Shown in pieces: positions 2,873 through 61,296 of a stretch of DNA of 64,000 bases. The stretch is from Echinostoma caproni. Taxonomy: Eukaryota > Platyhelminthes > Trematoda > Plagiorchiida > Echinostomatidae. Numbering within the stretch: the first letter of the stretch is position 1; the number at the start of each line of letters is the position of its first letter. The notes beneath the pieces are model-generated. The model worked only from the letters and a program-made list of their open reading frames with translations. It ran no database searches and was not told where the DNA came from. The stretch spans positions 228,521-292,520 of the forward strand of contig UZAN01039370.1 in the NCBI GenBank assembly GCA_900618425.1. Direction: 5' to 3'. The translations under genes were made by a program, and so were the position numbers.

Positions 2873-4262
2873 GAATCTCTGAATTTGACGATGTGCTATG
2901 TTTGATTGCCACGTGATGGGGCTAAACAAAAGAAGTAATAATCTGATTTGTAACCTCACACATTTGGCAATACTCTTGGCGTTATTAATACATGTTTAAG
3001 TTCGTAATCTCACAAAGTGACGCGTAATGCTGATATATACATTCAGTATTTTCAAAAGGCAGTTAAATAATATGAAGATCTCAAACGGCAATTTCAGGAG
3101 TGACAGTGGAACCAGATAATGTTGGGATATAGTTGGGTCGTTTAATGATTTACAGACCATGTTACCTTTGAAATGCGAGTAAGCTTGAAACAATATTTTT
3201 ATTAAATTACACAACAGTAATTTGCTTTGCCATTAGGTAATAGACTCAACAATGAAACAGCTGATTATGAATTATATGGAGTGAAGCTTGTAGAAAACAT
3301 TGGTCGGGGGCAACATATATGAGGCACGTTGAGAAAGCCTCATGGGTCGCAAAATATGTGCAGTGATACGCGTATTAATTTAGATGATCGATAATCCATT
3401 TTTACTTTAGCATTTGCTGGCGAAATACAAATGAGGATTGCATCAGCGTGGAACAAAAGGAAGTGTTTAGGTAATTTGTATTCCCATTGGTCATAGACGA
3501 AGCCAAAACTATTTTTCTCACAGTGGACACATGAAAAACTGCATGTATCTAAAATGTGTCCTTATGAAGAGAGCCAGGTCTATTAGAAAGTGTATCTGAG
3601 CAACTGCTTCTACTAATAAAGAAGTTTCTATTACAGTTACACTATAATCATACATTTTGAACCACAGTTCCTAAGTTTTGATCCCATCTGCTTCGAGTAT
3701 AGTTGAAAACAATTCATTCTTTAATGTTGAGCAATGATCAAGGTCACCTATTAGACGGAAATCCATGAAAATGTGTGTATCATGCGAAACTAGAAAATGT
3801 TTGCCCTTTCGGAATAAAACAAAACATTATGTGCTGCGTTTGACAATTCAAGCACTACGCAGGTGTGATTGGCTGAGAGACGAGAAGCGTTTCTGCCATT
3901 CGTTCATTATTCAAACGACTNGACTTACACAAACCTTTGATATGCGGACAAATTCATTCTCGTTCAAAATTAGGCACACAGCTAAAACTTAAGAAAAGTC
4001 GCCACGTGTGATGAAAGCCACATAGAAAATATCAGTGGTTTTCTATAACCTACTGTAACCTACATTGTCACTCATGGATTTTTATTATGAGCGAAATCAT
4101 TTTTAATCTGCCGTCTGTCAAAATGTGATTAAGTATGTATAGTGGAAACCCGACTTTTTCGGGGTAATTGAATTCGTTTGTCTTTACATCCTTAACACAA
4201 ATCACATAAATTCGTGTGTAATCCGACGTTGGAATTGGCTCACTTCAACCAAATTCTTGCGA
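2873..4262. other. no gene seen
   Basis: AT-rich sequence with one ambiguous base at 3921. A 23-bp segment at 3156-3178 is flanked by TTTACAG and GTAAGC and could be a micro-exon, but nothing else supports it. No repeat or motif is recognised. Confidence 0.5.
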
Positions 4263-4358
4263 TAAATATTTATTATATTTAATATTAATTATAATATTAA
4301 TTATATTATTATTATATTAATTAATATTTAATATAATATATATAAATAATATTTATAT
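4263..4358. repeat. AT-only low-complexity tract
   Basis: About 95 bases are composed almost wholly of A and T in irregular TAATATTAATTATA-like units. The tract is rich in self-complementary stretches and lies shortly upstream of the Penelope-like element remnants. Confidence 0.95.
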
Positions 4359-4610
4359 CCTTGGATGCAAATGGTATTTAAAAGCTGTTTCTTTGTTTAT
4401 AAGGTTTTATTGATAGAACGTCTGTCTCACTTTGTCCGAAGCGACTCACAAAATGGAAAGAAGCCGCATAAAGGAAAAGGAGAAATGGGTATTTGATTAG
4501 TAATGTTTGGTTGTGTAATTGGGTTAAGGTTCTGTGTTGGCATACTTTGAGGCTAACTGAACTTCGTTTGTGATGATCTTACGTAAAAGAAAGATACGAT
4601 ACCAACGCAA

Positions 4611-4887
4611 ATTTGCAAACAAGATCATTTTCAGTGTATCTTTACCATGCCATTACAACACAATAAATATGACAAGTCGCAGAACAGTCCAGAACTGTTT
4701 CGGGGAGTTCGATTGGTTAACACAAAAATCCAGTAATTGAATACGAGTATTGGCCAACGCCAGCTTGGTGCGGAACTTGATATAAACGTTTCTTTAGTAC
4801 GATGGAATCCTACGCTTGTTTCAAATGTTTGAATAGTACCACGGAGCTCATAATGAGAACACCTATTGGCAAACATGCTAGTTTTCA
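4611..4887 (-). repeat. inverted copies of the Penelope-like element's 3' terminal sequence
   Basis: Read on the minus strand, 4669-4611 matches 6622-6682 of the plus strand at roughly four positions in five (shared core ATATTTATTGTG.TGTAATGG, then ACTGAAAA). Minus-strand 4887-4806 matches 6660-6722 (shared core TTCTCATTATGAGCTCCGTG, then TTCAAACA). The two left-hand blocks are separated by about 140 bp not found on the right. Penelope-like elements are known to carry terminal repeats (pLTRs) in direct or inverted orientation, often with partial tandem copies, so I read these as inverted terminal repeats of the element starting at 4911. An independent inverted insertion is the alternative. 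Confidence 0.7.
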
Positions 4888-4910
4888 CTGTGACCGGTGA
4901 GGGTGACAAT

Positions 4911-5507
4911 ATCCCAGCATAGTTTTAAGGATACAACCGGGCTCAATGAAGCCTTGAGTGGCTTAAACATCAAAGACCGCTACAAGTTTTCGTTAGACGT
5001 CACATCTCTGTTCACGAATGTTCCGATCGGCGAAACAATTGATTATTTGTCTACCTATTTCGAAATTAAGGGGATTGACGTAGGCCTACCGACAGCCGAC
5101 TTAAAGGAATTGTTCCTGTTCTGCACTCACAATGTGCAATTCAATGAGAAAATCTATTGCCAGAATAACGGTGTGGTAATGGGGTCCTTTTATACCGATG
5201 TTTTCATGTTTCAAATATAAGGTGGTCTACTTAAAACATCTATCGAACAATGTGTTTTGTACAAACGTTACGTAGACGATATTTTGTCCGTGATGGAATC
5301 AATAACGGAGTGCCAACATATACTGGATCATTTCAATGCTGCGCATCGGAATTTGAAATTTACGATTGAAAGTGAGGCAAACAATCAACTAACATATTTA
5401 GATGTTTGCCTAACTCGTTGTGATCACGGTTCCATCAGGCAGTCAGTACACAGTAAGGCGCCTTGGAACGGACAGTACATTTTTTTCCGTAGCTTAATAT
5501 GAAGAAG
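4911..5507 (+). pseudogene. reverse transcriptase core of Penelope-like element (broken)
   Basis: One frame runs from 4897 to 5502 with a single internal TAA at 5218-5220, where a sense codon is expected just before the GGLLKTSIEQ segment. Palm motif A is in SLDVTSLFTNVPI, with the aspartate of LDV. Motif B is QNNGVVMGS, after which the usual PLGPVLA-like stretch is shortened to FYT, an apparent in-frame deletion of about four codons. Motif C is YVDD at 5269-5280 within KRYVDDIL. The following NQLTYLDVCLTR matches the conserved FLDV segment. Near 5490 the frame shifts so that LNMKKNLIL continues in another frame up to the insertion. The upstream ATG at 4897 lies in flanking repeat and is not a credible native start. 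Confidence 0.93.
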
Positions 5508-5520
5508 AATCTCATACTTT
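5508..5520. repeat. left target-site duplication of the SINE-like insertion
   Basis: AATCTCATACTTT is repeated as AATCTGATACTTT at 5967-5979, 12 of 13 matching. Removing one copy plus the insert rejoins the interrupted reverse-transcriptase reading frame, with NLIL on the left continuing into LANRARKICT on the right. Confidence 0.88.
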
Positions 5521-5555
5521 AGTGCGATGGAAATGTTTGTGATAACCAACAAAGA

Positions 5556-5600
5556 GCACTGGATAGCTGCTTCGTCCTGTTTTTGACTCATCAACAGTGC
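5556..5600 (-). ncRNA. degenerate hammerhead ribozyme motif
   Basis: On the minus strand the order is GCACTG (helix I), TTGATGA, GTC-loop-GGAC (helix II), GAAG, CAGCTATC (short helix III and the TC before the expected cleavage site) and CAGTGC, which pairs with the first GCACTG. The active consensus requires CUGAUGA and GAAA. Here the first core base is U instead of C and the last is G instead of A, so I expect little or no self-cleavage. The layout, with its minimal helix III, matches the hammerheads of schistosome SM-alpha repeats. Confidence 0.75.
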
Positions 5601-5619
5601 GTACTCCTGTGTCCCTGCC

Positions 5620-5675
5620 AAGACTCGAACGGCGATTCTTGGGTGTTGGGACTTCAAACCTTTTCCCTTGGGCTA
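5620..5675 (-). promoter_or_regulatory. internal RNA polymerase III promoter-like boxes (A and B) of the SINE
   Basis: Reading the minus strand, TAGCCCAAGGG (5675-5665) resembles the A-box consensus TRGCNNAGYNGG, and GTTCGAGTCTT (5630-5620) resembles the B-box GGTTCGANTCC. The spacing is that of a tRNA. Whether they still drive transcription is unknown. Confidence 0.6.
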
Positions 5676-5966
5676 CACAGTCGATGGTTATCATCTTCTG
5701 CAAAATGGCTCAATCGATTTAGATGGTGAATGTTTGGATTGGCCCATTCTAGTTTTTACAGGCACTGTAGATGATTTTGGGTGTGAGTTTCACTCCTTGG
5801 AAGGTTGGAAATTGTTGGTTATCACAAACATTTTCATCTCACTAAAATGCAAACAAACAGTGGAGAATTAACGATGTCCCAAGGAGTGAAACCCACATTG
5901 AACATTATCAACAGCGCCTGGTGCCTGTAAAAAGCCGAATGGGCTCTTCCAAACATTCACCATCTA

Positions 5967-5979
5967 AATCTGATACTTT
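5967..5979. repeat. right target-site duplication of the SINE-like insertion
   Basis: AATCTGATACTTT is the partner of 5508-5520, with one mismatch. The Penelope-like coding sequence resumes immediately after it. Confidence 0.88.
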
Positions 5980-6503
5980 GTTTGGCCAATCGAGCTAGAA
6001 AAATTTGCACGATGGACATACTGGTTGAGGAACTCCAAAATGTGCGGAATATCTTCATCCAAAATGGGTACCCGGAGAGGTTGCTGGAATCCAACGGCAA
6101 GAAGCATTTTCCAAGAGGTTAATTGCTGAGAAGAATTCTGTGTACGTTTCTTTACCATTAAAACTCGACACCTCGGCAGAGATTGTGCACAGAAACCTGT
6201 CAAATTCCATCAACAAAACTTTCTACGCGTCCGTGAGCATCACCCTGCGTGTTTGCGGAGTGGAGCAAATAAGTCAATCACAAGCGCTGTCGTGTTGTCC
6301 CTTGTCGACACTAATAACATTGTAAACGTGACCGAAGCGTTCCACCCCTGTAAACAGTTAAGAAGGGACGGCCTAGACACGTGCGGTTTCGCCTTCTAGC
6401 CACAGCAGAGGCAGTCTCCGTTCGTCTTCACAAACCCCTCTGTGAGCTCAGAAACATTTTGTGCAAGCACACAAGCTCCCATGGCCGAATAGCCGACAAC
6501 TGA
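5967..6503 (+). pseudogene. thumb, linker and C-terminal tail of the Penelope-like protein (broken)
   Basis: Three frames are needed. From 5970, ILCLANRARKICTMDILVEE and then NIFIQNGYPERLL match the reverse-transcriptase thumb and end at a TAA (6119-6121). From 6140, VSLPLKLDTSAEIVHRNLSN and then INKTFYA match the linker usually written LPFKGD...NRTF. From 6277, SLVDTNNIVNVTEAFHPCK and, after another shift, VRFRLLATAEAVSVRLHKPL match the conserved tail downstream of the endonuclease. The GIY-YIG segment itself, normally about 90 residues between linker and tail, is absent: only about 40 bp separate the two. The stop at 6501-6503 is the likely native end. Confidence 0.85.
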
Positions 6504-6740
6504 CCTGTCATAAAACATCGGAGCAACTGTCAATTGGGGACCAATTATGAAACAAACTCATCAATACTTTATATACTTTCCCTCTCTTGTTTTCCTTGTA
6601 AATGCTTCTTTAATACTGGTGATATTTATTGTGCTGTAATGGGATGATTAAGGCGCACTGAAAACGAGCTTGTTTGCCAATTGTTCTTCTCATTATGAGC
6701 TCCGTGCGACTGTTCAAACACGTGAACTGAAAATGTTGAC
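6504..6740 (+). repeat. 3' non-coding end of the Penelope-like element
   Basis: The sequence follows the C-terminal stop of the element. From 6622 onward it shares two blocks with the inverted copies at 4611-4669 and 4806-4887. It holds no open frame of note. The exact 3' boundary cannot be set by eye; 6740 marks where the similarity fades. Confidence 0.65.
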
Positions 6741-6961
6741 AGTGAAATATTGATTCACACATTAGCTGGATATCTCAATTTGCGGAAGCCCTCATGGTAA
6801 AAGCAGACGTCGGACAACCGAATAAATCTTCCGTACACAGATTATCGTGGCAACTAGAAACGTTCATAATAATCTTTGGTTGTCGAAGCTGCACTGTCTT
6901 CTAAGAAAGGTGTGCACATTATAGTTTTAAAATAAATACCATGCTTTATTGGCGAGCACGG

Positions 6962-7035
6962 ATAGTGGCGATCGAGTAGTACAGATCACAAAATCAATAA
7001 TCCGGATGGTCTGCGTTTCAGTCCCATTACCACCG
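6962..7035 (+). repeat. tRNA-like SINE head or tRNA pseudogene
   Basis: An A-box-like TGGCGATCGAGTAGT (6966-6980) and a B-box-like GTTTCAGTCCC (near 7015-7025) are spaced as in a tRNA gene, ending in ATTACCACC. The stems do not pair well enough for a functional tRNA. The layout resembles the second tRNA-like segment at 49293-49366. Confidence 0.4.
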
Positions 7036-10000
7036 GTTAATATTGCTCGTGTTTTGTTTTATGGCAGCCGGTCCTTCTTTCTTGAAAATTTCAGCGTTGT
7101 GTTCAATATAGAAAGAAAAAAGGAAAATAGGATGTATTCTTGGAGATAAATATAAAATTTGACGTTTCGCGTTAATATGGCATGCGACGAAGAATACATT
7201 TGAACAAGTCTTCGACCTAGTGCGAGAAAAACAGGAATTTTGCTGTGTGACGTACAGTGTCTCATGCGATTTGAGATATCCTGCCACAGTGTGAAGTTCT
7301 TTTAAGCAGATAAACTGTATGACGATGATGGATTCTCACGGTTGAGAAATCCAAGGATCCAATGCTAAAATAGATAAGTACTGTAAAGGATGCATAAACA
7401 AAGTTGGCGGTAGGTGCGAAAACAAAGTGTTTGAAACAATAAAAAGAACCAACATTCATCCACGGAACTACTTTCTTCATCACAATAAACGTCACTATGA
7501 CCTATTCAGACGTGGTATATCTGCAGAAAATAAATCGTTCTTACCCTACTGTTTTACCACATTAATTCCTGACGATGCACACAAAACTTGAACTCCTCTT
7601 AGATTATCGCAATGCTTTAGGCGAACAGATGGAGGACACAATAAACATTTCTGAGTCGTAATCTCTTACGTTAGGTAGGGTTCCGAATGCAATTCGTAAA
7701 AATGATCCATCAAAATCTCGTTATTCACCATACTTTGTTTCACAGAGTTGAAAAAAATTCGTTCCATGTGTAACGTTCGTATAGCCAATAACACTCACGA
7801 GATTATTGGAATATTTGAAATCATTATACAAAGTGTACAATCAAATATGAAGGGAGTATATATATATATATATATCAAAATCGATGAACCGTTCTTGCTT
7901 ACATACCGAAATATTGGAAAGAGGGAATCAATGCGGACTGCGATAACTAGATGACGACTGGGTGAATCTGTCAACATTACTAGCTGCACGGACACTATTT
8001 TGCGCCGTGTTATTTGATCAAAATACCTATTAATGTGAAAAGATATAAATATCTAAATTCAGTATGATTACCGTCCCTGAATGATATACACCGCGCAGAA
8101 GTGCATTGAGTACATCATTTGCGTGAACCTGAAAACAATACGCCAACAATTGTGATGTTACTCAATGAAAAGCAAATATTCAACTCCACATACTTGTCGT
8201 ATGGTGCTTTTCATTTAATTACACTAATCACTAATTATTTTGATTCTTTGAAAACGAAAAATGGTTTCTAAAATGGTTTCGTTTTCCCGTTGCAATATTT
8301 ATAAAATCCTAACTCATTCATCATATCAAATTATCACAACACAGAAGTATAACGCATTAATTTGTAATAAACTGAAGAAGTAAATAAGAAATGTAGATTT
8401 ATAATGTTTCTGTGGGGGGAAATCATAGACTTGTTTGCTTTCGTACATTTCCTCAACACCACCGCTGTTATGGTGTTTTTAGGAAAACGCGTAGTTAAAC
8501 CTTGAAATATGTTCCATGGGAACGATCTGTCACAAAGCACTTAGGCTGAAAATCACGCTCTCACACGATGGGATCTCAGCATTGATGGCGGAACGAAATA
8601 AAACGGAAATCAACTACAATGTGAAAGAATTTACTCAGGCATTATTTGATTTAAAATCCCTAAAAACAGTCGACGTTTTCTGGATTTTAGAATTGATATC
8701 CGGGTAACCTATGGACTGTTGGTGTAATGAACGAAACGCTCAAAAATGGCTGCCGCTGTATCTGTAGAAATTTCTCATTTCTTCTGTCAATGTTGTTTAC
8801 GCTAAACGTATATAGTTGCAAACTGAGAACAATATATTTCGAAATATTTTGCCTAATCTCTGCACTTTACATCAGTGAATATATATGAGGTTATCTTAGT
8901 GCCTAAGGCGTACATAAGTCCACAAGAATAACAAATTCGTACAAAACACCGTTCGTGGATGCTATCTTCATCCGGGATTGGTTTTCAGCTTCATTCTCAA
9001 ACTAAGCGAGTGAACCCAATACTGCCACCATTACTACCAGTATTGCCAACCAAAATAATTATTTTGGCACGTTACTTGATTACTTGCTTGATTGATTTGC
9101 GGCTTCATTTTTGGTCGAGAGGAATACAAATATCCTCAAATGAAGTAAGCGGGATACAGAAATCGGAAACTCGTTGCATTCACTCATTGTTATTTGCGAA
9201 TATGCAAACATATAAGCAATTACAGTAATCCTGGAAGTAAATCCTATTCTTGCTACCTTCATACAATTCAGGTGCCGTAATTGACATGAATATCGAGCAA
9301 GATGTTTGTACTATTCACAAACGTTTTCTTGTTTATCTCTGATGAGCACCCACACAAAACGGTCTTGAACTTTACAGTAAAATTATACCGGTTATTGTAT
9401 ACACGTCCTGTCATTTATCCGATGCCAATGACAAGATAATCGTCCTCAGTTATCGATTTACATCAGTCACGTTAGTTGCAATGGAACGGGGTTAGGTACC
9501 TAGTTCACTAATTGTTTACCAGTTTTAGGTGAAGGCTACCAACTTCCAATGGCTTCATTTGACTGGGTCACGTTTTCTTCCAAATATATGCCCTTTTAGA
9601 TAGACGGACATTGTTGAGCTGTTCGACTGCTTCGAATAACCGTTCCTTACGTTACTCAAGAAAACCTTACGCATTCGATCGCCAAATGTGAACACGAAAG
9701 AGTGGCGGTGCCCAAAATTCAACCTCATTTATTTGAATAACGGATCTATTTCCTTACCGATTAATCGACTGGAGGAAGCTCTTCCGATCATACGAGATTA
9801 ACCGAATGAATATAATAAAAACGGCTGGATAGTTTAAAGATTGAAGCCATTCTGTGTCTCAAATCTACCTGTCAGATATATACATTGTTGACGGAAATCA
9901 ATAATGAATCAGCTACATATCTGAGGACCAAATGTATACTATAACACGAAGCCTATGCTATCTCAAGTTTTGTTCACCTCAGTGTACTATGTGCCTCCTC

Positions 10001-18760: not shown

Positions 18761-20053
18761 TAAATAAAATAGGTGAATCCGGTTATAACAGAATTCAGTT
18801 TCATCATTATTTTTTTCTCCTTCGCGCTGTTGGTGGGAATATCGCTAGTAATCGATTCCATAAAATGATAACTATTTTATCGTTGCACCTTTGTCATTGC
18901 ATTTGTCGTAATCTGTAAGGCACATATAGAACAAAGATTGAAAACAGATATTACACATACAATGTTTAATCGTGCCCATATGCCTTGATATGTTAATTAC
19001 AATATACTCATCTGCACATTTTCAAATGAAATGCGTTTAAACATCAGTTCCATGGAAAGCCAAACAGTGAGCTCGTAGTTAGGGGTAGTGCATTAGTCTG
19101 CCAACTACAGTCCTTCACGTTTTATTGTGAACAAGATTTTAATCGTGTGCCGACAGAATTAGAACCAAACCGCCTAATATTCCGGTTGGGATGTTTTTAG
19201 CTTGTATATTGAGTATATTTCGGTATAATAAAATAACTGAGGACTAACAGAATGATAAATCACTAAAATATTGAAAATAGTCTGTTACATTGAACTAAGA
19301 CAACAAGGAAACAAATGTCAACGATGAGGGTGTGTTGCATATAGAGTATGATGCAACTAACCGAAAAGAAAATCTAAACCTGGGCAGCCTATTATCTGCT
19401 GAAACTGTTCACAGAAGATAAGTTATCCTTTTTGCCAATAATTTTTTTCGTTATTCAGCTCCTTGTTGGTTATCAACATATAAGTATAAGATGTGTTAAG
19501 GTACTCGATAGGGGAGTTGAACTTCTGTTAGTCACTTATTTGCAAGACTGAAATTGCGTACCGGTCACAGTGTGGTCTCTGCTACTAGTAAATAGGAATG
19601 CCTAAAATTTGAGAGCACATAACAACAACTTTCTTGGATTTTGTCACTGCAAACGAAAGTTGTTATTCAGGTTAAAACCTGGGCAGTTTTGAATGTCGCT
19701 ATCTCTCAGCAAAGTTCGGAAAACATATATGTGAAACAATCAATTGCATCATTCCATGTGCATAATTATTCATAAGATTATGAGTTCACAGCTTTGGAAA
19801 TATGTTGTGATGATGCATGCGTGGATTGAATCTCACGGGAATTGAGCCGCCATATGGAATATCGGTTTTCTCGACTGCGTTTTACTCAACGATAGGAAAT
19901 ATAGATGGAATGAGCAATGTCTTCTCTACCGGAAAATATTTATTTTTATAGTTACGCCCTGCTTGTCAGAACCTTTTTTGGTGGGGACAATATAAGGTCG
20001 AGACCAGAAGCAGTTGAATTATTGAATGTATAGAGAACGAAAATAGCTGAATG

Positions 20054-43992: not shown

Positions 43993-44457
43993 NNNNNNNN
44001 NNNNNNNNNNNNNNNNNNNNNNNNNNNNNNNNNNNNNNNNNNNNNNNNNNNNNNNNNNNNNNNNNNNNNNNNNNNNNNNNNNNNNNNNNNNNNNNNNNNN
44101 NNNNNNNNNNNNNNNNNNNNNNNNNNNNNNNNNNNNNNNNNNNNNNNNNNNNNNNNNNNNNNNNNNNNNNNNNNNNNNNNNNNNNNNNNNNNNNNNNNNN
44201 NNNNNNNNNNNNNNNNNNNNNNNNNNNNNNNNNNNNNNNNNNNNNNNNNNNNNNNNNNNNNNNNNNNNNNNNNNNNNNNNNNNNNNNNNNNNNNNNNNNN
44301 NNNNNNNNNNNNNNNNNNNNNNNNNNNNNNNNNNNNNNNNNNNNNNNNNNNNNNNNNNNNNNNNNNNNNNNNNNNNNNNNNNNNNNNNNNNNNNNNNNNN
44401 NNNNNNNNNNNNNNNNNNNNNNNNNNNNNNNNNNNNNNNNNNNNNNNNNNNNNNNNN
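43993..44457. other. assembly gap, 465 N
   Basis: Unknown sequence flanked on both sides by (TA)n arrays. The assembly probably broke at the dinucleotide repeat. Confidence 0.99.
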
Positions 44458-45716: not shown

Positions 45717-48700
45717 ACGAGTTATCAACTTTTCCACTTACACGATGAAAAACGAATAACTGTTATCACGGGTCTACAGGAGAAATTAGGTTTCCCTCTG
45801 GGTTCACTTTTATGAAAGCATAACCATAAGCATGCAGAAATGGCTTCCACTGCCCATAGTCTGACTCGGTGTGTGCTTTTCCACCCCCGGTTTCAATGAA
45901 CTTGTGAAACATTGTGGACAGGAAAACAACTAATATTGTCTATAAGGACAATGGTTCAAACACTGCTCAGTTTAATTGCTCGATTAAGTTAATGGGTGGA
46001 ATCAAAGGCTTTATCTTTTTTCTGTTGGTGGCAATTCTCCGCTTTAGGTTTTTCTTATAAATTTTCTGAAACAAAATGATTCCTTCTCTTCAACGATTTC
46101 GGCAAAACCAAAGGACATAGGTGCGAACTTCTAAAGTGTACGTCATTTTCGCCTTTTTTGTTCACTTCTGAGAGAAAACTCACTCGGACCAAAATAATTT
46201 CATCCATGCTTGTTTTGATTTGTGGTGATACACTGTTATACTTTGGAACCGACGAAATTCATTGTCAATTAATGGGGAATGCAATATAAATGTCCAATTT
46301 AGAGTATAACGTTTTGAAATTACTTTTTACAAACACAGATTCGCAATATCACAAATAAAGAATAAAAGTGCAACGAAAAAGGATTACTCGGAAATACTGC
46401 TATGAATGGTAATCTATTGCATGGATACTAATTACTGAAAATGAGGTTGTTTATTTTATGTCTGATATACAATCACGTCTCACGTGAATTGTTCTACACA
46501 AACTCAGTTCGTCAATTACACAACACCCGGTTGAAATAAAACACTGTCATGCTTCGTGATGCGTTCAGAATCCCCTACAACACAAGCAACACCAAGGTTC
46601 TGAGATAGGCCGAAGAACTAGCCATTCAAAATTACTATCCCAAACTGTGTAAACAGAGTCGATAGCTTGGTAACCGTTTTTTGGTGAGTAATTGTGACCG
46701 AAATCTTTCTCCGTATATGGTTCTACTATTTACTGACCATATGATAATGATCACAAACGGCAGTATGTATGTGTAAACCTGTGATTTTGGCTTCTGTACT
46801 CAAAGCTTTTATGAGGAAACTATGATTCAAATAGCTTTAGGTGTGACCAAGTACATCGGTTTGACTGACACAAAACTCAAACGGTGGTTCCACATCGTCA
46901 GACTCCTGTTGACTTCATAAATCACGTTTGTATCTCTGCAAACTCTGGCTTTTTATGCTAATGTCATCATGTTCACCCTTCCTTGTTGATTACACAGTAC
47001 CTCACGATACGAATCGGACCGCCGTGAACGCATCGAAAAATTCGTGACTAGTTTATCACATGCAAACTTCTTCAAGTCCAGGAACTGCATGCGTTTAGAT
47101 GCTATCAGTACCCGTAATCTTAGTTCCAGTGTAGATTTGTTTCACTGATAAAAGTTACATTCAACCTACCGCATAATAATATTCATTATTCCTTAATAAC
47201 GAACTACCAATAAGAAACGAGAGTGTAAATAAAGTACACCAACATTGAGTGAGCATCGTGAATAAACTGAGCAGCGTAAAAGAGTTTCAGACTCCATTGA
47301 TGTAAAGAGGAACTGTACTAGCTGGTCAACAACTCCAGTTAGGAAACAACCTGTTGATCTGAAAAAAAGTTTCTTTCATCAGGTGCTATGTTGTAGTATC
47401 ATACTAACGTTCTCTGTGTACTTCGATTCTGGTATGCGTAAATCGTAAACACTCAACAGGAAATTTTGCGTTGATTACCTTATACCACACACATATCGGT
47501 GTGGAAACGCCACACTGATTCAGTTTAAATTCTTGCAAACACCATTCTCCTAATGAGCCCTACGACGTTCAACCATTAAATGAACCCAAGTTTTGGTCTG
47601 TGCGTTTTCTGAAATAATCTGATACAACGGTAAAACACCACTATAGAAGTCTGATCATGGTACAAAAACGGCCGTAACTACGCCGAGTTTACTTCTTATC
47701 GTGAAATACGCATTTTGCAATGTACCAAGCATCTCTCATTTGGTTCGAATGTTAGTAAGTATCATGCAAGCAGTATGTGTACTACTCTACAATTTCCCAA
47801 ATACCAGAAGACAACAGCATTCTATCACTGTATTCCCGGTAGGCAATCATCGTCCTACAAATGCAATTATTATGTCAACAACAGCAAGTGATAGTTGATC
47901 AGCTAGAGGCTGTCTCCCACATCGTAAATCGTGTTCCCCTGAAAAAGCATTCTCCTTTTCCGATCGAATATTTTTTCATAGAAAAAACAATATTTTTGTT
48001 TCTTTCCGCTCAATATCACAGAGCGAAAATCACATCCCCGCCTAACGATGATATATCGTGTTCCGGATTTTCGACTCGTCAGACCTAACACTGAAGGCAA
48101 AATAAATCAGTACTTATAGATTCGGTCGCTCATAAAAGAACATTTAAAGAAATTTCATTTTTTCGTTGATGTATCAAATAAAAGCAAAGACATTACAATG
48201 TAGGAGCAACGCCTCGTGAAAAATAATTCAAGTTTGACGTGATATATTTTGCAAAATCATGTACAAATAGACCACTAACTGGTGATAAGGTTCCTTTTGT
48301 TCTAGGGCTTGCTCGCTTGGTTGGGTAAGCGATGATAAGCATCAACCTCAATTCATTAGATTCGTACTTGTGCACCAGAATAACTTGAATTTTGGTAAAG
48401 CGGTAGATATGCTTTTTATCCTCGTCCACTTAAAGTTCAGCGAAATAATCTCAAAACTTTAGTGTATCAAGGTTTGATTAACCCATGCTATCTTTCAGAG
48501 GCACCAGGCACTGTTGATGGCCTTGCACATAGGCGACAGTAAGGTTGAAGCAGCGTGAAGTTGGGCAGCTAGAATCTAAACTCAGTACATTAGAGCCTGA
48601 TAATACAAGGGATTTTGGCTAAATGAAATGGCTAAATGAAAACAAACAATAATTCAAAGTGTGCACAATTTTAGCCTGGGGAAGACAACAACTGCTGATG

Positions 48701-59734: not shown

Positions 59735-60387
59735 GTGGGCAGAATTAATATTAGCCATCAATTTCGTGTGCCCTCATTCAGCTGTAAGTGCACACATGAG
59801 TTGAAATGAGTCATTTGAACAAGGTGGTGGGCAAGTGAGTTACGTGAGTTTTGCTTGGTTAGGGGTTGAGGTTAAGTTAGATGACATAATTTGATATGTA
59901 GATGAACTGGTCCGAATGATATGATGATTGCGTTTGAGGGGGATTGAGTGAGGCTCATGTCACGCCAACCTATGATGGGGTGGTGTCAAGGTTGACATAA
60001 TCACTACTACGGCAACAACATNACTCTCAAAGTCCAGGAACGTCTAGGCCTCGCGATGACTCGGTGCGTCAACATGCTTATCTGGATCTAACCAATGACG
60101 GACGATCGCACTAGATGGTGGTTTTCATCCCCCAAAGATCTCCCCTCTCTGTCCCTCCACCTAATTCAGCACATCGTTTGGAGAAGTTGACGTCCATATC
60201 AAATGTTGTCATCTGGCTTGACCTCAGCCCCTAATCAAACACAAATCACTCAACTCCCTTGTCCACCACCTTGTTCAAATCACTCGTTTCAACTCTTATG
60301 TTTGTTCTTTTTACAAGATCATAAAAATGTTCATTTACAGCTGAATGAGAGCACACGAATTTGGTGGTCAATATCAATCCTGCCCAC
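59735..60387. mobile_element. large imperfect inverted repeat (fold-back or MITE-like element)
   Basis: The left arm, 59735-59915, and the right arm, 60180-60387, are reverse complements at roughly four positions in five over their length. Shared blocks include GTGGGCAG..T.ATATT, TTCGTGTG, CTCATTCAGCTGTAA, ATTTGAACAAGGTGGTGG and TTAGGGG.TGAGGT.AAG. The right arm has an extra stretch of about 30 bp near 60300-60335. Weaker similarity continues inward towards 60010. The right arm runs directly into the 909-base gap, so the outer boundary on that side is hidden. It holds no transposase-like frame. It is either one non-autonomous fold-back element or two copies of a repeat in head-to-head orientation. 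Confidence 0.88.
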
Positions 60388-61296
60388 NNNNNNNNNNNNN
60401 NNNNNNNNNNNNNNNNNNNNNNNNNNNNNNNNNNNNNNNNNNNNNNNNNNNNNNNNNNNNNNNNNNNNNNNNNNNNNNNNNNNNNNNNNNNNNNNNNNNN
60501 NNNNNNNNNNNNNNNNNNNNNNNNNNNNNNNNNNNNNNNNNNNNNNNNNNNNNNNNNNNNNNNNNNNNNNNNNNNNNNNNNNNNNNNNNNNNNNNNNNNN
60601 NNNNNNNNNNNNNNNNNNNNNNNNNNNNNNNNNNNNNNNNNNNNNNNNNNNNNNNNNNNNNNNNNNNNNNNNNNNNNNNNNNNNNNNNNNNNNNNNNNNN
60701 NNNNNNNNNNNNNNNNNNNNNNNNNNNNNNNNNNNNNNNNNNNNNNNNNNNNNNNNNNNNNNNNNNNNNNNNNNNNNNNNNNNNNNNNNNNNNNNNNNNN
60801 NNNNNNNNNNNNNNNNNNNNNNNNNNNNNNNNNNNNNNNNNNNNNNNNNNNNNNNNNNNNNNNNNNNNNNNNNNNNNNNNNNNNNNNNNNNNNNNNNNNN
60901 NNNNNNNNNNNNNNNNNNNNNNNNNNNNNNNNNNNNNNNNNNNNNNNNNNNNNNNNNNNNNNNNNNNNNNNNNNNNNNNNNNNNNNNNNNNNNNNNNNNN
61001 NNNNNNNNNNNNNNNNNNNNNNNNNNNNNNNNNNNNNNNNNNNNNNNNNNNNNNNNNNNNNNNNNNNNNNNNNNNNNNNNNNNNNNNNNNNNNNNNNNNN
61101 NNNNNNNNNNNNNNNNNNNNNNNNNNNNNNNNNNNNNNNNNNNNNNNNNNNNNNNNNNNNNNNNNNNNNNNNNNNNNNNNNNNNNNNNNNNNNNNNNNNN
61201 NNNNNNNNNNNNNNNNNNNNNNNNNNNNNNNNNNNNNNNNNNNNNNNNNNNNNNNNNNNNNNNNNNNNNNNNNNNNNNNNNNNNNNNNNNNNNNNN
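60388..61296. other. assembly gap, 909 N
   Basis: Unknown sequence. Open frames spanning it are artefacts of N. The gap begins at the end of the right arm of an inverted repeat, a plausible cause of assembly failure. Confidence 0.99.

What the first reader, a model, noticed from the sequence alone, without database searches (positions are those of the whole stretch)
5508..5979. SINE-like element nested in a Penelope-like element with a 13-bp target-site duplication
AATCTCATACTTT and AATCTGATACTTT flank a 446-bp insert, and the retroelement reading frame on the two sides rejoins (NLIL, then LANRARKICT) once the insert and one repeat are removed. This gives exact insertion boundaries and a relative age order. 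The long TSD is consistent with LINE-type target-primed integration.
Basis: partly seen in the sequence, partly recalled or inferred. Interest (0 to 1): 0.75.

Follow-up and report, generated by a model that had tools for sequence, protein, structure and literature searches.

The report
Decayed hammerhead-ribozyme SINE inside retroelement
In what looks like fluke DNA, an old Penelope-like jumping gene was interrupted by a small parasitic element that carries a worn-out self-cutting RNA motif; the kind is known from flukes, but this copy went in partly back to front, as if copied from a repeated or circular RNA.

Summary
Two 13-mers (12/13 identical) flank 446 bp, and the local frame rejoins. 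Such a repeat alone is not above chance; here it abuts the insert's inverted-repeat arms at both ends (about 1e-4 expected by chance).

"SINE-like" can be sharpened. On the minus strand the insert has pol III boxes A and B (5675-5622) and, 21 nt on, a full-length but degenerate type I hammerhead (5600-5556; 26.7 bits, cut-off 34, E 3.2e-4 in 701 bases). Boxes plus hammerhead are reported for schistosome SINE-like elements. The host is probably a fluke.

My reading: one target-primed, twin-primed insertion from a multi-unit or circular RNA (inferred, about 0.45). No other full copy was seen; ten own-genome requests did not complete. The kind is known; this copy looks dead.

The parts
5508..5520 (+). 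left copy of target-site duplication, AATCTCATACTTT
   Evidence: 12/13 identical to the right copy
5967..5979 (+). right copy of target-site duplication, AATCTGATACTTT
5521..5966 (-). insert, 446 bp, GC 43.5% (window 37.6%); hammerhead SINE / retrozyme-like, element sense = minus strand
5665..5675 (-). pol III box A-like TAGCCCAAGGG
   Evidence: only box A..box B site in 64 kb; 2 of 200 shuffled windows have one under the strict pattern, 7 of 200 under the lax one; patterns written after seeing the site
5622..5630 (-). pol III box B-like GTTCGAGTC, 34 nt after box A
5556..5600 (-). degenerate type I hammerhead ribozyme, all 45 model positions; stem I 6/6 pairs, stems II and III 3 of 4 each; core changes CUGANGA to UUGAUGA and GAAA to GAAG
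   Evidence: 26.7 bits, below the cut-off of 34; relaxed descriptor, only site in window, 2 of 100 shuffles have one
5518..5552 (-). segment A, direct copy: 3' end of the element in element sense
   Evidence: 33/35 to the inverted copy
5553..5715 (-). segment T, with the two boxes and the hammerhead
5716..5813 (-). segment B, direct copy
   Evidence: 79/98 plus a 7-nt gap to the inverted copy
5812..5846 (+). segment A, inverted copy
5847..5865 (+). segment L, linker between A and B, present only in the inverted piece
5866..5970 (+). segment B, inverted copy; its last 4 nt AATC coincide with the start of the right target-site duplication
4894..5502 (+). left part of the interrupted Penelope-like RT remnant (one internal stop at 5218-5220)
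   Evidence: best hit an Echinostoma caproni RT-domain protein, 67% over 68% of the query
5980..6325 (+). right part of the host element (LANRARKICT..., then a shifted frame)
   Evidence: no homologue found, identity by recalled motif

Best explanation
The insert is an old, decayed copy of a hammerhead-ribozyme SINE that resembles schistosome Sm-alpha elements and animal non-LTR retrozymes, in a trematode-like genome, lying antisense inside a dead Penelope-like element. How it likely works: internal pol III boxes drive transcription of tandem units; the hammerhead of an intact copy would cut them to unit length (inferred from the kind); a reverse transcriptase of another element copies the RNA into a nicked target. 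Here the left flank ...ACTTT-3' would have primed on the RNA end CACTAAA-3' and copied A, T and B; the opposite nick, ending ...GATT-3', would have primed on AATC inside an upstream B of the same RNA and copied B, L and A, giving the inverted half (twin priming). Because A and B occur in both halves, the template must then have held more than one unit: a linear multimer or a circle. Shown: duplication, box-like sites, hammerhead match, inverted tiling. Inferred: pol III use, TPRT, twin priming, template form. Sub-probabilities: hammerhead SINE 0.85; single twin-primed event from a multi-unit template 0.45.
For: Rfam Hammerhead_1 matches positions 1-45 of 45, E 3.2e-4 in 701 bases, 0.029 in 64 kb. 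The only box A..box B pair and the only hammerhead-descriptor hit of the window lie 21 nt apart, inside this insert and on one strand; shuffles give them in 2 of 200 (strict; 7 of 200 lax) and 2 of 100 (patterns written after the site was seen). S. mansoni mucin-gene introns carry hammerheads with boxes A and B (PMC2576457, passages), and the Sm-alpha SINE-like family carries a type I hammerhead (PMC8490949, section 11); that the boxes lie upstream of the hammerhead there is my recall. Animal retrozymes: units of about 300 bp in tandem, GC below 45%, TSDs longer than 4 bp (PMC7229834, passages); the unit here is 315-322 bp, the insert 43.5% GC, the duplication 13 bp. Inverted and direct halves tile A-L-B-T-A. 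The element's own letters match the target at both joints: TTT/AAA and AATC/GATT.
Against: The hammerhead is below Rfam's curated cut-off (the gathering-threshold scan of the window found 0 families), has two core changes and one mismatch each in stems II and III; the minimum-energy fold of the 74 nt around it is not a hammerhead (z -1.27, 18 of 200 shuffles fold as well). No tRNA match. No other copy with boxes or hammerhead was found. Mismatches between the B copies are clustered (70 of 5000 permutations as clustered) and A differs less than B (Fisher p 0.06), so the halves may come from already different units, which speaks against a circle of one unit. No poly(A) or simple-repeat tail in the sequence.
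Confidence: 0.7

Rival explanations
1. A foldback or MITE-like DNA transposon family: the long inverted repeats are the element's own termini and the hammerhead-like piece is cargo or chance.
For: Very strong hairpin: -94.5 kcal/mol against a mean of -52.2 in 100 shuffles, z -9.3; overlapping inverted repeats.
Against: The arms do not end together: the A arms span 5518-5846 and the B arms 5716-5970, so neither pair brackets the insert. Box-like sites and a hammerhead occur together on one strand.
Confidence: 0.15
2. Same kind of element, but two separate events: a 5'-truncated element inserted first, and a second copy landed in inverted orientation or arose by local DNA rearrangement. (This overlaps with the best explanation in what the element is; it differs only in how the inverted half arose.)
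For: B copies differ more than A copies (81% against 94% identity, p 0.06) and their mismatches cluster.
Against: One target-site duplication encloses both halves; self-blastn with 7-base words shows no other direct repeat within 5508-5979, though a very short duplication would escape it. The second event would have had to land exactly on the edge of the first.
Confidence: 0.3
3. An ordinary SINE whose hammerhead-like stretch is a chance match.
For: Score below cut-off; E 0.029 over the whole window.
Against: Full-length match with 6/6 stem I pairs, located 21 nt after the only box A/B pair in 64 kb.
Confidence: 0.1

Closest known systems
Schistosome Sm-alpha / Sj-alpha SINE-like elements
   Same: SINE-like, type I hammerhead; boxes A and B with a hammerhead in S. 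mansoni; fluke-like host.
   Different: No Sm-alpha sequence was available to align; the hammerhead core is mutated, no tRNA match (Sm-alpha copies are predicted as tRNA-Gln), and half of the insert is inverted.
Animal non-LTR retrozymes
   Same: Unit about 320 bp against about 300 bp, GC under 45%, type I hammerhead, TSD longer than 4 bp, one apparent tandem joint. A putative S. mansoni retrozyme RNA with a tRNA-Glu stretch is in print (PMC4918200, figure legend among passages).
   Different: No tandem array here; circular RNA not shown; the ribozyme is probably inactive.
Hammerheads of Penelope-like elements
   Same: Type I (PMC7761336, passages); short stem III without a loop in the alignment; the insert sits in such an element.
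   Different: It lies in the insert next to pol III boxes, antisense to the host element, not in that element's own repeats.
Twin-primed L1 inversions (recalled, no paper read for this)
   Same: Inverted 5' part, direct 3' part, TSD, short matches at the joints.
   Different: The two parts overlap in sequence, which a single linear unit cannot give.

Membership tests
animal hammerhead SINE / non-LTR retrozyme | type I hammerhead motif (recognisable, active or not) | tested here: met
   full-length RF00163 match, E 3.2e-4 in 701 bases; E 0.029 in 64 kb
animal hammerhead SINE / non-LTR retrozyme | hammerhead with intact core, reaching Rfam's curated score | tested here: not met
   26.7 bits against 34; 0 matches at gathering threshold; two core changes. 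Bears on activity of this copy, not on ancestry
animal hammerhead SINE / non-LTR retrozyme | target-site duplication longer than 4 bp | tested here: met
   13 bp, 12/13
animal hammerhead SINE / non-LTR retrozyme | tandem units of about 150-450 bp, low GC | tested here: inconclusive
   one A-L-B joint implies a 315-322 bp unit, insert GC 43.5%; no array in the window
animal hammerhead SINE / non-LTR retrozyme | many dispersed copies in the genome | tested here: inconclusive
   own-genome search did not complete (10 calls); in the window only a B-like piece near 48458-48518
animal hammerhead SINE / non-LTR retrozyme | self-cleavage and circular RNA | not testable with these tools
   -
schistosome Sm-alpha family proper (not filed as a member) | boxes A and B together with the hammerhead | tested here: met
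   order of boxes and hammerhead in Sm-alpha is recalled
schistosome Sm-alpha family proper (not filed as a member) | tRNA-like head detectable by tRNA finders | tested here: not met
   ARAGORN 0 genes; Rfam tRNA not among the matches up to E 10
schistosome Sm-alpha family proper (not filed as a member) | sequence similarity to Sm-alpha | not tested
   no Sm-alpha sequence at hand; the original paper is not held
Penelope-like element (host of the insert) | Penelope-type RT | tested here: inconclusive
   RVT_1 E 0.0035, below cut-off; 13 relatives of 52 candidates, three of them named as Echinostoma caproni RT-domain proteins; the Penelope label is by recalled motifs
Penelope-like element (host of the insert) | GIY-YIG endonuclease C-terminal to RT | tested here: inconclusive
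   no GIY-YIG match in the four right-hand pieces scanned, but the remnant is frameshifted and some members lack the domain (recalled)

The most novel reading that the evidence does not exclude
The insert is a genomic fossil of reverse transcription from a multi-unit or circular hammerhead RNA: two opposed target primers copied overlapping stretches of the same template, leaving an inverted A-L-B next to a direct B-T-A. It would be physical evidence for a step that retrozyme authors propose (PMC7229834, section 17), namely that circular retrozyme RNA is the integration template.
Probability: 0.25. Interest if true: 0.6.

Novelty: new member of a known kind. Interest (0 to 1): 0.33.

Why it matters
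As a SINE in a dead retroelement it is ordinary. It gains interest because retrozyme authors propose that circular RNA is copied by the reverse transcriptase of an autonomous element, with Penelope-like elements as a strong candidate (PMC7229834, section 17), and joints like this one could be counted genome-wide to test for multi-unit templates. If the host is indeed a fluke near Echinostoma, it would also place this kind of element outside the schistosomes.

Tried and rejected
Own-genome search for other copies: ten identical requests, none answered. The A motif (22 nt, exact) gave 0 matches in viral contigs and 0 in genome contigs. The left RT piece: 2 stretches of viral contigs matched a pattern, neither confirmed. 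Right-hand host pieces: 0 of 4 and 0 of 33 candidates reached E 0.001. The right piece against the 13 RT relatives: the one alignment that no shuffle of 200 equalled (P0005) falls inside the RT domain, not after it, so I do not count it as support. microRNA-family matches over 5713-5974 are far below their cut-offs and probably reflect the long hairpin. A plain MITE bounded by the A arms was rejected because the host frame resumes only at 5980. The bare 13-mer repeat as proof of insertion was rejected. An 18-nt A-like match at 19458-19475 (blastn E 0.052) was not counted. Print: 'hammerhead ribozyme' with 'twin priming' and 'hammerhead' with 'circular RNA', 'target-primed reverse transcription' and 'inverted' found 0 papers, in the open-licence library only; the Sm-alpha paper and the Penelope-hammerhead paper are not held. 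Papers: of PMC7229834 I saw the abstract, passages and sections 14 and 17; of PMC8490949 passages and section 11; of PMC2576457, PMC7761336, PMC2770079 and PMC4918200 passages only; no paper whole.

Full report
What is there. The 13-mers at 5508-5520 and 5967-5979 match at 12 of 13 positions and flank 446 bp. With one copy removed, the local frame reads KKNLIL-C-LANRARKICT. The repeat by itself would not be evidence: 13-mer pairs this similar, 300-600 bp apart, occur twice in window 3001-8000 and 1.75 times on average (maximum 6) in 20 shuffles. What makes it an insertion is that the copies abut, with overlaps of 3 and 4 nt, the insert's inverted-repeat arms at 5518 and 5970. From the shuffle rate, 6e-5 such pairs are expected for a tolerance of 3 nt, about 1e-4 for 4 nt by the same arithmetic; the test was framed after seeing the data.

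The flanks. The left flank is a decayed reverse transcriptase: RVT_1 at E 0.0035, below cut-off, and 13 relatives at E 0.001 or better among 52 candidates from 5.8 billion proteins, the best three named from Echinostoma caproni (67% over 68% of the query for the first), the other ten unnamed. The Penelope label rests on motifs that I recall (RYVDD, WNGQY, NL..RA..IC). The right flank found no homologue in two searches and no convincing match to the 13 relatives. A frameshift between about 5480 and 5500 separates the RT frame from KKNLIL and is not caused by the insert. The host is therefore probably a trematode; no other test of the species was made.

What the insert is. On the minus strand there is a box A-like site (5675-5665) and, 34 nt later, a box B-like site (5630-5622). 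It is the only such pair in 64 kb; 2 of 200 shuffled windows have one under the strict pattern, 7 of 200 under the laxer one. Twenty-one nt downstream lies a type I hammerhead matching all 45 positions of RF00163 (5600-5556), 26.7 bits against a curated cut-off of 34, E 3.2e-4 for 701 bases and 0.029 for the window; the scan at curated cut-offs found nothing in the window. A relaxed descriptor, written after the site was seen, hits only this place, and 2 of 100 shuffles have a hit. Stem I keeps six of six pairs with letters partly different from the consensus; stems II and III each have one mismatch in four. The core reads UUGAUGA and GAAG where CUGANGA and GAAA are expected, so this copy is probably inactive; one S. 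mansoni W-element hammerhead with a core mutation was reported inactive (PMC8490949, section 11). The minimum-energy fold of the surrounding 74 nt is not the hammerhead. No tRNA is found.

Comparison. S. mansoni mucin-gene introns hold hammerheads with boxes A and B (PMC2576457, passages). The Sm-alpha family is described as SINE-like with a type I hammerhead (PMC8490949, section 11), and most predicted Gln-tRNA copies of S. mansoni are such SINEs (PMC2770079, passages). That the boxes precede the hammerhead in Sm-alpha is my recall. Animal retrozymes are units of about 300 bp, from dimers to multimers, with GC under 45% and TSDs longer than 4 bp (PMC7229834, passages), and are reported from platyhelminths among others (section 14). 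The insert fits this set: unit 315-322 bp, 43.5% GC, 13-bp duplication. I do not file it as Sm-alpha proper: a tRNA head was tested and not found, and no Sm-alpha sequence could be aligned.

The inverted half. In element sense (minus strand) the insert reads inverted [A-L-B] then direct [B-T-A]. A copies: 33 of 35 identical. B copies: 79 of 98 plus a 7-nt gap. The direct piece gives the order B-T-A and the inverted piece A-L-B; together they describe a tandem or circular unit A-L-B-T. At the left joint the element end CACTAAA can pair with the target's TTT; at the right joint the element's internal AATC matches the target strand ending in GATT. Both are what target-primed synthesis with twin priming would leave, provided the template held more than one unit. 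This is inference. Against one template of identical units: B mismatches are clustered (70 of 5000 permutations as clustered; the longest run of matches alone, 328 of 5000) and A is better conserved than B (Fisher p 0.06). A linear multimer of unlike units, or two events, remains possible.

Other copies. In the window the clearest further trace is a B-like piece at 48518-48458 minus (nhmmer E 7.6e-4, blastn E 6e-4; best in the reversed-window decoy: blastn E 1.1, no nhmmer hit), with no recognisable boxes or hammerhead after it. Its similarity to the direct piece may run a little past B (nhmmer covers positions 33-117 of the direct piece, E 0.049), which weakly suggests that the inverted B is cut off at an insertion joint and not at a natural end. 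Exact scans of two public collections for the A motif found nothing; those collections hold viral, bacterial and archaeal DNA, so this says little. The own-genome search did not complete (ten calls).

Verdict. The element is of a known kind; the overlapping inverted joint is the part worth following.

Noticed in passing
4610-4677 / 6615-6682 and 4820-4890 / 6656-6726: Inverted repeats (82% over 68 nt and 85% over 71 nt) bracket the host-element remnant, perhaps its own partly inverted terminal repeats.
   Followed up: partly
48458-48518 minus: A second, diverged copy of segment B of the insert, without recognisable boxes or hammerhead.
   Followed up: partly
59735-59940 / 60153-60387: Another long inverted repeat, about 70% identical, ending at an assembly gap (60388-61296); blastn of the insert shows no hit there.
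   Followed up: no
5218-5220 and about 5480-5500: A stop codon and a frameshift in the host RT remnant that do not come from the insert.
   Followed up: partly
43993-44457 and 60388-61296: Runs of N (assembly gaps), the first bordered on both sides by TA repeats.
   Followed up: no
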